Assembly (NCBI GenBank): GCA_002280565.1
Contig: NCEF01000017.1
Span: 1 to 56,389 of the forward strand
From: Sphingomonas sp. 32-66-10
GTDB taxonomy: Bacteria > Pseudomonadota > Alphaproteobacteria > Sphingomonadales > Sphingomonadaceae
Length of the DNA: 56,389 nucleotides
Direction: 5' to 3'
Shown here: one piece after another, positions 31,327 to 33,734 of the stretch
Layout of the letters: every line of letters begins with the position of its first letter
How positions within the stretch are numbered: position 1 is the first letter of the stretch
Notes under the pieces: generated by a model
The model's input: only the letters and a program-made list of their open reading frames with translations
What the model was told of the DNA's origin: nothing
Databases searched by the model: none
Translations under genes and position numbers: made by a program

Positions 31327-33734
31327 CCGACTTCCTCCTCGAACTCCGCTCCGAAGAAATTCCCGCGCGCATGCAGGACAAGGCGCGGGAGGATCTTGCG
31401 CGCCTGTTCACCGCCGAGCTGGACAAGGCAGGCCTCAAGGCCAGTGCGCTGGTCACCTATGCCACCCCGCGCCGCCTGACGCTGATCGCCCGCGACCTGC
31501 CCGAGCAGACGGCGGCGGTGAGTGAGGAGCTGAAAGGCCCGCCCGCCGATGCGCCCGATGCGGCCATCGACGGTTTCCTGCGCAAGGCCGGGCTGACCCG
31601 CGACGCGCTGGAGACCCGCGACGTGAAGGGCCGCGCGACGTTGTTCGCGGTGATCGACAAGCCCGGCCGCGCGACGGCGGATGTGCTGGCCGAAGCGATC
31701 CCGGGAATCGTCCGCGCCTTTCCCTGGCCCAAGTCGATGCGCTGGGGCGAAGCGTCGCTGAGCACCGAGAGCCTGCGCTGGGTCCGCCCGTTGCAGGGCA
31801 TCGTCGCGTTGCTGGGCGAGCGCGTGGTGGCGTGCGAAGTTGCGGGCGTGCAGTCCGGTGCCGTCACCGTCGGCCACCGCTTCCACTATCCCGACGCGAT
31901 CACGGTTCGGAGCGCCGCGACCTATGTCGAGCAGCTGCGCGACGCCCATGTCATAGTCGACCAGAATGAACGCCGCGCGACCATCGCGGTCGGCGCGAAG
32001 CTGGCGGCGAACAAGGCCGGCCTGACTTTGGTCGAGGACGAAGGGCTGTTGATCGAGAATGCGGGCCTCACCGAATGGCCGGTGCCGCTGCTCGGCCGCT
32101 TCGATGAAGCGTTTCTCGACGTCCCGCCCGAGGTGATTCAGCTCACCGCGCGCGTGAACCAGAAATATTTTGTCTGCACAAATGCTGGGGGCAAGCTGGC
32201 GAATGCCTTTATCTGCACCGCGAACATCGACGCGGCGGATGGCGGCGCGCGGATCGTCGCGGGCAACCAGAAGGTGCTCGCCGCGCGGCTCAGCGATGCG
32301 CGCTTCTTCTACGAAACCGATTTGAAGACGCGGCTGGATGACCTGCATCCGAAGCTCGAAAAGATCGTCTTCCACGAAAAGCTCGGCACCGTCGCCGACA
32401 AGGTCGACCGCGTCGCCAAGCTCGCGCGGTGGTTGGTGGAAGAGGGGATCGTAAAGCCCTCTCCCCTTCAGGGGAGAGGGTTGGGAGAGGGGGCTGACGT
32501 AGCGGCTCCTGCCAATCCCACTGCCCCTCTCCCGCCCTCGCTCCGCTCGGCCACCCTCTCCCCTGAAGGAGAGAGGGAAAAGCTGGCCAACCTCGCCGAT
32601 CGCGCCGCGTGGCTGTGCAAGGCCGACCTCGTCACCGGCATGGTCGGCGAGTTTCCCGAGCTGCAGGGCCTGATGGGTGGCTATTACGCCGCCGCGCAGG
32701 GCGAAGACCCGGCCGTCGCCGCCGCGATCCGCGACCATTACAAGCCGGTCGGGCAGGGCGACCAAGTGCCGACCGCGCCGGTCACGGTGGCGGTGGCGCT
32801 GGCGGATAAGCTGGATACGTTGGGGGCGTTCTTCCTTGTGGATGAAGCGCCGACCGGCTCGAAGGATCCGTTTGCGCTGCGTAGAGCTGCACTCGGCGTA
32901 ATTTCGCTAGTTGCTGCAAACAGGCTGCGAGTTAATCTAGTCGATGCGGTCTTTGCGGTCTGGAATCAACTGGCCAATATTTCGGATGAAGTCTGGAAGC
33001 TGCACCCAATAAAGCTCTGGATCGATAGCGAGATTCAAATTGCCAGCTTAACCAAGAGCCGGGTGGCGCAAGCTAGTATGCGCCATCTCACGAGTTGGTC
33101 GTTCACCGAAACGGCGCGTGCCGACGCGATCTATCTCCCGGCCGTCCGCTTGCTCCAATTTTTCGCCGACCGCCTCAAGGTCCAGCAGCGCGAAGCCGGT
33201 GTCCGCCACGACCTGATCGACGCGGTGTTCGCGCTGGGCGGGGAGGATGATCTCGTCCGCCTGCTCGCGCGCGTCCATGCGCTGCAGGCGTTCATGGCGA
33301 CCGAGGATGGGGCGAATTTGCTCGCGGGGTACAAGCGTGCCGCGAATATCCTGAAGAAGGAAGGCTACACCCAATCCGTCACCCCAGCGAAAGCTGGGGT
33401 CTCGGGAGGCGGAGCGGGGCAGGAGCCGCATGAGGCCCCTGCTTTCGCAGGGGCGACGGCTTCATCTCTATCCTACGCACCCGAACCCGCCGAGGCGGCG
33501 CTGATCGCCGCGCTTGATGCGGCGGAGCCCAAGGCGGCGGCTGCGGTCGAGGCGGAGGACTTCGAAGGGGCGATGGCCGCACTCGCCCTGCTGCGCGTGC
33601 CGATCGACGCGTTCTTCGCGGATGTGACGGTCAACGACAGCGACCCCGCCAAGCGCGCGGCGCGGCTGGCGCTGCTCGCCCGCATGCGCGACGCCGTCCA
33701 CCGCGTGGCGGATTTCGGGAAGATCGAGGGGTAG
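31323..33734 (+). CDS. glyS: Glycyl-tRNA synthetase beta subunit with two in-frame repeat insertions
   Basis: Beta subunit, needed for tRNA-Gly binding and for activity with Gly[15 protein letters not shown] at the N-terminus, [11 protein letters not shown], the [17 protein letters not shown] stretch, [38 protein letters not shown] and [20 protein letters not shown] identify it. It is 803 aa, longer than the roughly 700-750 I recall. Two palindromic repeats (32457-32577 and 33376-33459) are read through in frame and add about 40 and 30 residues of repeat-encoded peptide. Residues near 520-580 (32881-33060) are about 49% GC by hand count, well below neighbours. Start is GTG 31323, GGAG upstream. 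Confidence 0.92.
32457..32577. repeat. Palindromic repeat, family B, inside glyS
   Basis: Left hairpin CCCTCTCCCCTTCAGGGGAG... (32457-32480) and right hairpin (32554-32577) are near-palindromic; between them lie CTCGCTCCGCTCGG-type sequence. Related elements are at 33743-33770 and 53638-53747. Read in the glyS frame it encodes [14 protein letters not shown], then [18 protein letters not shown], with no stop codon. It separates conserved GlyS segments VEEGIV and ADRAAWLC. Confidence 0.88.
33376..33459. repeat. Palindromic repeat, family A, inside glyS
   Basis: Arms 33376-33403 and 33432-33459 are near reverse complements of the type at 4215-4325 (ACCCCAGCGAAAGC core). The element spans 84 bases, a multiple of three, and is translated as [13 protein letters not shown], then [10 protein letters not shown]. 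It follows conserved [13 protein letters not shown] and precedes the C-terminal anticodon-binding-like helices. Confidence 0.88.

What the first reader, a model, noticed from the sequence alone, without database searches (positions are those of the whole stretch)
32457..33459. Two different palindromic repeats translated in frame inside glyS
Seen: a family B element (32457-32577) and a family A element (33376-33459) interrupt conserved GlyS sequence, contain no in-frame stop, and keep the reading frame, so the protein gains about 40 and 30 residues of repeat-encoded peptide. Members of both families also occur between genes in this window (4215-4325, 33743-33770, 53638-53748). Known parallel: Rickettsia palindromic elements that insert inside protein genes. 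Inference: sphingomonad repeats can behave as protein-coding mobile palindromes, tolerated in surface loops of an essential enzyme. This is the strongest candidate for an undescribed phenomenon here.
Basis: partly seen in the sequence, partly recalled or inferred. Interest (0 to 1): 0.75.

Follow-up and report, generated by a model that had tools for sequence, protein, structure and literature searches.

The report
Palindromic repeats recurrently inserted in GlyS
An essential bacterial enzyme gene (glyS) carries two different hairpin-forming repeat DNAs that are read as extra, probably floppy, protein loops, and relatives show that different repeat families occupy the same two loops again and again.

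Summary
glyS (31314-33734, 806 codons) contains a 121-bp family B palindrome (32457-32577) and an 82-bp CGTC-tagged family A palindrome (33377-33458), both in frame and stop-free. Both fold better than 200 of 200 shuffles and belong to families found elsewhere in the genus.

In 110 GlyS proteins the two sites are recurrent landing places: S1 carries a repeat of families A-E in 63 of 110, S3 in 44 of 110, against 6 of 1215 control segments elsewhere in glyS. Species 92-95% identical differ at S1: full family C element, family A element, or a seven-residue stub that I read as a deletion scar. In 34 GlyS from outside the sphingomonads neither site is expanded. AlphaFold predicts both inserts disordered. 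Neighbouring glyQ and ppdK show 0 of 42 and 1 of 37 such insertions.

In-frame REPs, including in tRNA synthetases of two species that I recall as sphingomonads, are in print (PMC3733652), so this is a new variant of a known kind. A third site between them (S2) holds unrelated orphan sequence that is often replaced wholesale between close species; that is the stranger observation.

The parts
31314..33734 (+). glyS, glycine--tRNA ligase beta subunit, 806 codons (start GTG at 31314 or 31323)
32457..32577 (+). Site S1: family B palindromic element read in frame ([12 protein letters not shown]...SPEGERE)
   Evidence: Arms 25 nt, 96% complementary; RNA z -5.91; 21 own-genome matches, self included; matches in 62 of 74 genus genomes, own included.
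33377..33458 (+). Site S3: family A, CGTC-tagged REP pair read in frame ([27 protein letters not shown])
   Evidence: CGTC at both outer ends; RNA z -5.35; matches in 52 of 74 genus genomes, own included.
32946..33152 (+). Site S2: orphan non-repeat segment between the two elements, hypervariable among relatives
   Evidence: No match under E 0.03 in the other 150 genus genomes searched; no Pfam match at E <= 1; repeat families in 0 of 110 S2 segments; GC3 of the window falls to about 0.5 from 32859.
30433..31326 (+). glyQ, alpha subunit; control gene
   Evidence: 0 of 42 full-length orthologues with 15 or more extra residues; 44 loci searched, 43 matched, 1 partial dropped.
33898..36552 (+). 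ppdK; control gene
   Evidence: 1 of 37 full-length orthologues with 15 or more extra residues (a family D-like repeat in L109); 44 loci searched, 38 matched, 1 partial dropped.
4215..4325 (.). Family A element outside any coding-like frame
   Evidence: Arms 34 nt, 88% complementary; no spanning frame.
33743..33770 (.). Half family B element just after the glyS stop
53638..53748 (.). B-type element outside any coding-like frame

Best explanation
REP-type palindromic elements of several unrelated families, found mostly outside coding frames, inserted in frame into two permissive, disordered loops of GlyS (S1 in the HD domain, S3 before the anticodon-binding domain) and are read as passenger peptides. 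In sphingomonads the two loops are emptied and refilled: by new insertions, by internal deletions that leave short in-frame stubs, and by homologous recombination that spreads insert alleles among close species. Shown here: in-frame presence, membership in dispersed families, recurrence at the same sites, family differences among close relatives, a short stub at the same site, predicted disorder, relaxed amino-acid constraint. Inferred: translation into stable protein, that the elements moved as units, that the stub arose by deletion, that recombination spread the alleles, and that the inserts are near-neutral. The mobilising enzyme is unknown.
For: S1 63/110, S3 44/110, S2 0/110 carry families A-E; control segments 6/1215. 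Self-complementarity above each of 50 shuffles: S1 49/65, S3 21/54, S2 3/75 of inserts of 20 aa or more. Minimum family changes on the GlyS tree: 26 over 63 tips at S1 (shuffled mean 28.6), 12 over 44 at S3 (shuffled mean 18.0). At one site, L054 has a full C element, L055 an A element, L071 and L072 the stubs LSARGED and LPARGED; pairwise core nucleotide identity 92-95%. S1 C insert 98-100% identical in six pairs with core 91-93%, and 95-96% in four pairs with core 88-89%. pLDDT block means 34-49 (S1), 35-39 (S3). pN/pS 0.72 (S1, 5 pairs) and 0.61 (S3, 4 pairs) against 0.22 and 0.17 in core. Own genome: 2 of 20 element places lie in a coding-like frame, both in glyS. Elsewhere 5 of 40 copies, chosen from the listed matches of four genomes with glyS left out, do: uvrA twice, ileS twice, a thiD-type kinase once.
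Against: S2 accepts inserts of up to 100 residues yet shows no repeat family in 110 of 110, so tolerance alone does not explain where repeats land. No target-site duplication was demonstrated. Y1 transposase was not found in this genome and in only 6 of 74 genus genomes. Family labels are imperfect: 31 of 110 S1 segments match patterns of two or more families and were given the closest. The high identity of the S1 insert is not always exceptional: in the six close pairs 0 to 15% of 44-codon core windows are as identical. The pN/pS pairs were preselected for insert identity of at least 0.80, which lowers insert pS. The stub could be a separate state rather than a deletion; its direction was not tested.
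Confidence: 0.8

Rival explanations
1. Targeted insertion: an unknown transposase or recombination route prefers the DNA of these two sites, so they are hot spots for insertion and not merely places where insertions survive.
For: Same two sites reused by families A-E; S1 family nearly unrelated to phylogeny; S2, tolerant of length, receives none.
Against: A UvrA loop and an IleS loop show similar behaviour (biased samples); flanking codons at S1 differ between species; 35 of 40 and 18 of 20 examined copies have no coding-like spanning frame.
Confidence: 0.1
2. The repeats serve glyS: the mRNA hairpins or the Pro/Gly-rich peptides tune GlyRS expression or assembly and are selected.
For: Very stable hairpins; S1 C insert 98-100% identical in a clade with 91-93% core identity; pN/pS below 1.
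Against: 43 of 110 species have a short S1 and 57 of 110 a short S3; unrelated families stand in for one another; amino-acid constraint is relaxed; recombination or recent origin also gives high identity.
Confidence: 0.07
3. Assembly or contamination artefact in a draft assembly.
For: The window's genome is a fragmented 83-contig draft, 83% complete.
Against: Same sites filled in single-contig genomes, reading frame kept.
Confidence: 0.01

Closest known systems
Intragenic CGTC and GTAG REPs (Di Nocera et al. 2013, PMC3733652; seen: abstract and first part, section 15, passages)
   Same: Short palindromes, many as inverted pairs, in frame within conserved genes including uvrA and tRNA synthetases; CGTC type without dedicated transposase; family A carries the CGTC tag.
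   Different: Not in the parts I saw: reuse of two fixed GlyS loops across a family by several unrelated repeat families, stubs, allele mosaics. Family B carries neither tag at an end. The supplementary gene lists could not be opened, so glyS may already be among their tRNA synthetases.
Rickettsia palindromic elements (Ogata et al. 2000, 2002; recalled, and as described in passages of PMC10969869; the 2002 paper is not held)
   Same: Palindromes inserted in frame in unrelated protein genes.
   Different: Here GC-rich families of sphingomonads, with different families at the same site. Rickettsia sequences were not compared.
RAYT-mobilised REP/BIME elements (recalled; also described in PMC3733652)
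   Same: Dispersed inverted pairs of REP-like hairpins, mostly outside coding frames.
   Different: No GTAG tag at the ends; Y1 transposase not found in this genome and in 6 of 74 genus genomes.

Membership tests
CGTC-tagged REP superfamily (family A element) | CGTC tetranucleotide at one end of a 20-40 bp palindrome; often inverted pairs | tested here: met
   33377-33458 begins CGTC and ends GACG, with CCCCAGC-GAAA-GCTGGGG and CCCCTGC-TTTC-GCAGGGG inside.
CGTC-tagged REP superfamily (family A element) | Multi-copy dispersed family | tested here: met
   Matches in 52 of 74 genus genomes, up to 25 listed per genome; only 3-4 in this genome, self included.
CGTC-tagged REP superfamily (family A element) | Sequence fits one of the four published CGTC consensus families | not testable with these tools
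   The consensus is in a figure, not held as text.
CGTC-tagged REP superfamily (family B element) | CGTC tag at an end | tested here: not met
   32457-32577 begins CCCTCTCC and ends GAGAGGG.
GTAG REP / RAYT system | GTAG tag at an end | tested here: not met
   Neither element carries it at an end.
GTAG REP / RAYT system | RAYT (Y1 transposase) gene in the genome | tested here: not met
   PF01797: 0 matches in G000, which is 83% complete; 6 of 74 genus genomes.
Rickettsia palindromic element-like behaviour | In-frame, stop-free insertion into a conserved gene, absent from orthologues | tested here: met
Rickettsia palindromic element-like behaviour | Sequence homology to a described RPE family | not tested
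   No RPE sequence was fetched.
MITE | Terminal inverted repeats with target-site duplication | tested here: inconclusive
   Terminal inverted repeats present; in S1 junctions read by eye no duplication was evident; no systematic test.

The most novel reading that the evidence does not exclude
The C-terminal, tRNA-handling half of GlyRS beta is under diversifying or antagonistic selection in alphaproteobacteria (for instance from a phage product or toxin that binds it). S2 cassettes of unrelated orphan sequence are swapped wholesale between close species, and in sphingomonads REP elements supply a second source of new loop sequence at S1 and S3.
Probability: 0.1. Interest if true: 0.85.

Novelty: new variant of a known kind. 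Interest (0 to 1): 0.55.

Why it matters
It turns an anecdote (a repeat inside a gene) into a measurable process: fixed loops of an essential enzyme in which repeat DNA differs between close species, giving natural replicates for how selfish DNA becomes protein sequence. Frequent occupation and single-contig genomes make the insertion route and the fitness cost testable. The S2 site, often unrelated between species over 90% identical elsewhere, asks why a housekeeping synthetase would carry an orphan, low-GC3 cassette.

Tried and rejected
RAYT mobilisation: PF01797 searched in the own genome and 74 genus genomes; mostly absent. Special codability of the elements: 10 elements have 2-5 of 6 frames open against shuffled means of 1.3-3.9, so GC-richness suffices. 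Homogenisation of S1 and S3 within one gene: own S3 was the best partner of S1 in 4 of 14 B/B genes, so occasional only. S2 as a repeat: rejected. S2 as a known domain: 10 S2 segments against Pfam gave two hits, both below cut-off.

One search used a mis-spaced pattern and says nothing. The first family patterns were too loose: 71 of 1215 control segments and 13 of 119 shuffled inserts hit; they were tightened. The UvrA and IleS samples are the 30 best-scoring loci each, so biased toward inserts like the query's; the UvrA site was parsed in 24 of 30, of which 14 hit a repeat family, 9 were short and 1 long without a family.

Literature searches; no title or abstract listed there was about REPs in sphingomonad glyS or a hypervariable GlyS segment. 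The supplements of PMC3733652 were not available, so an earlier listing of glyS cannot be excluded. Of 115 genomes with a GlyS match, own included, 70 were read; L061 (truncated) was dropped and 45 were not fetched. Of 80 named loci 41 entered the main alignment and 34 the outside check; L107, L110, L115, L127, L150 were left out as partial or misplaced for that set. S2 clustering parsed 125 of 150 proteins.

Full report

THE SITES. Aligned to E. coli GlyRS beta, S1 falls at residues 378-384, S2 at 501-525 and S3 at 594-608. A published complex places the acceptor-stem-binding loop H18-19 (Gly473, Asp474, Asp476) and the start of helix H19 (Arg481) in the HD domain (PMC9908026, passages); by numbering S2 follows that helix.

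REPEATS AT S1 AND S3. With tightened patterns S1 carries B 30, C 19, A 10, D 3, E 1, with 43 short and 4 other. S3 carries B 23, A 15, E 4, D 2, with 57 short and 9 other. S2 carries none. Control 150-nt segments elsewhere in glyS hit in 6 of 1215. B and C labels overlap: 31 of 110 S1 segments match more than one family and were given the closest. Without patterns, self-complementarity exceeds each of 50 shuffles in 49 of 65 S1, 21 of 54 S3 and 3 of 75 S2 inserts of 20 or more residues. Family C, met first in relatives, is itself dispersed, with matches in 68 of 74 genus genomes. Neighbour genes in 44 named loci: 0 of 42 full-length GlyQ and 1 of 37 full-length PpdK have 15 or more extra residues; the PpdK case looks like family D. 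In 34 GlyS from other named records, nearly all titled as alphaproteobacteria, neither site is expanded.

TURNOVER. On a quick tree of GlyS core columns the S1 family changes at least 26 times over 63 repeat-bearing tips, close to the shuffled mean of 28.6; S3 changes at least 12 times over 44 tips, below the shuffled mean of 18.0 and so partly inherited. Close relatives show possible steps: at one place L054 has a full C element, L055 an A element, L071 and L072 only the stubs LSARGED and LPARGED, with 92-95% nucleotide identity elsewhere. Reading the stubs as deletion scars of C is inference. In a second clade S1, S2 and S3 occur in different combinations: L020, L021, L023, L042, L043 share the S1 C insert; L020, L023, L025, L085 share one S3 B insert; L021, L042, L043 another. 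The S1 insert is 98-100% identical among L020, L021, L023 and L043 where core identity is 91-93%; in these six pairs 0 to 15% of core windows of the same size are as identical. That fits recombination of alleles but also recent origin or DNA-level constraint. Nine pairs with matching inserts give pN/pS 0.72 (S1) and 0.61 (S3) against 0.22 and 0.17 in core; counts are small (about 34 synonymous and 58 nonsynonymous differences) and the pairs were preselected for insert identity of at least 0.80.

NOT GLYS ALONE. Of 40 other repeat copies, taken from the listed matches in four genomes with glyS left out, 5 lie in coding-like frames: uvrA in two genomes and ileS in two genomes, each pair at the same site, and a thiD-type kinase. 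Of 24 UvrA sites parsed from the 30 best-scoring loci, 14 hit a repeat family, with A, B, D or E among them. At one IleS site 13 of 30 loci have 15 or more extra residues, 7 of them family A. Both samples are biased by scoring.

MECHANISM (partly inference). Copies of several families lie mostly outside coding frames. Those that enter glyS in frame at S1 or S3 probably survive because the loops are disordered and GC-rich elements are often stop-free. They would then be lost by deletion, replaced, or exchanged by recombination. How they move is unknown: Y1 transposase was not found here (83% complete genome) and is present in 6 of 74 genus genomes, in line with the published statement that CGTC REPs lack a dedicated transposase (PMC3733652). 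The absence of repeats at S2 is not explained by tolerance.

S2. Between the two elements lies a segment without repeats. Among 125 of 150 proteins that could be parsed, 94 have 40 or more residues after the FALRR motif; with the first 20 trimmed, 68 of the 94 have no relative at phmmer 1e-3. Of 28 pairs with core identity of 0.90 or more (not independent), 18 have S2 identity under 0.6; most of the other listed pairs have a six-residue S2, and two pairs that share a long cassette keep 92-95% identity. In 59 sphingomonads with an S2 of 30 or more residues median GC3 is 0.52 in S2 and 0.53 in the 30 codons upstream, but 0.80 in the 30 downstream. In the 34 outside GlyS the anchor-to-anchor S2 length is 34-128 residues. 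The window's S2 has no match under E 0.03 in 150 other genus genomes. No cause was established.

KNOWN WORK. In-frame palindromes are known from Rickettsia and, as GTAG/CGTC REPs, from many bacteria, including tRNA synthetases of E. litoralis and S. alaskensis (PMC3733652; that both are sphingomonads is recalled). What I did not find in the searches listed is the reuse of two GlyS loops by unrelated repeat families across the sphingomonads, and the S2 hypervariability.

Noticed in passing
32946-33152 (S2), and GlyS of relatives: Hypervariable orphan segment, often unrelated between close species; no repeat family, no Pfam match for the window's copy, no match under E 0.03 in 150 other genus genomes.
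   Followed up: partly
about 32856-33152 and relatives: Median GC3 falls to about 0.5 in S2 and in the 30 codons upstream, but not downstream: a one-sided tract (window profile).
   Followed up: partly
7104-7191, 12699-12791, 51682-51768: Another palindromic family: two copies with 34-37 nt arms at 95-97%, and a more diverged third.
   Followed up: no
L177, L193 (uvrA); L178, L189 (ileS); L207 (thiD-type kinase): In-frame family A or B repeats in other conserved genes, uvrA and ileS each at the same site in two genomes.
   Followed up: partly
L109 ppdK; G000:C16:30744-30772 (L176): In-frame family D-like repeat in PpdK; half A element in an apparent LigD linker of the own genome.
   Followed up: partly
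G070:C101:159445-159569 and G060:C11:761070-761194: A family C copy ends 13 nt before the glyS match, apparently between glyQ and glyS.
   Followed up: no
S3 of L041, L067, L070, L105, L111, L113, L118, L122: Long S3 inserts outside the repeat patterns share a TGEEDPL-like acidic motif.
   Followed up: no
L098, L135: Records titled Rhodobacterales and Arthrobacter carry GlyS that aligns with the sphingomonads; the titles may be misassigned.
   Followed up: no
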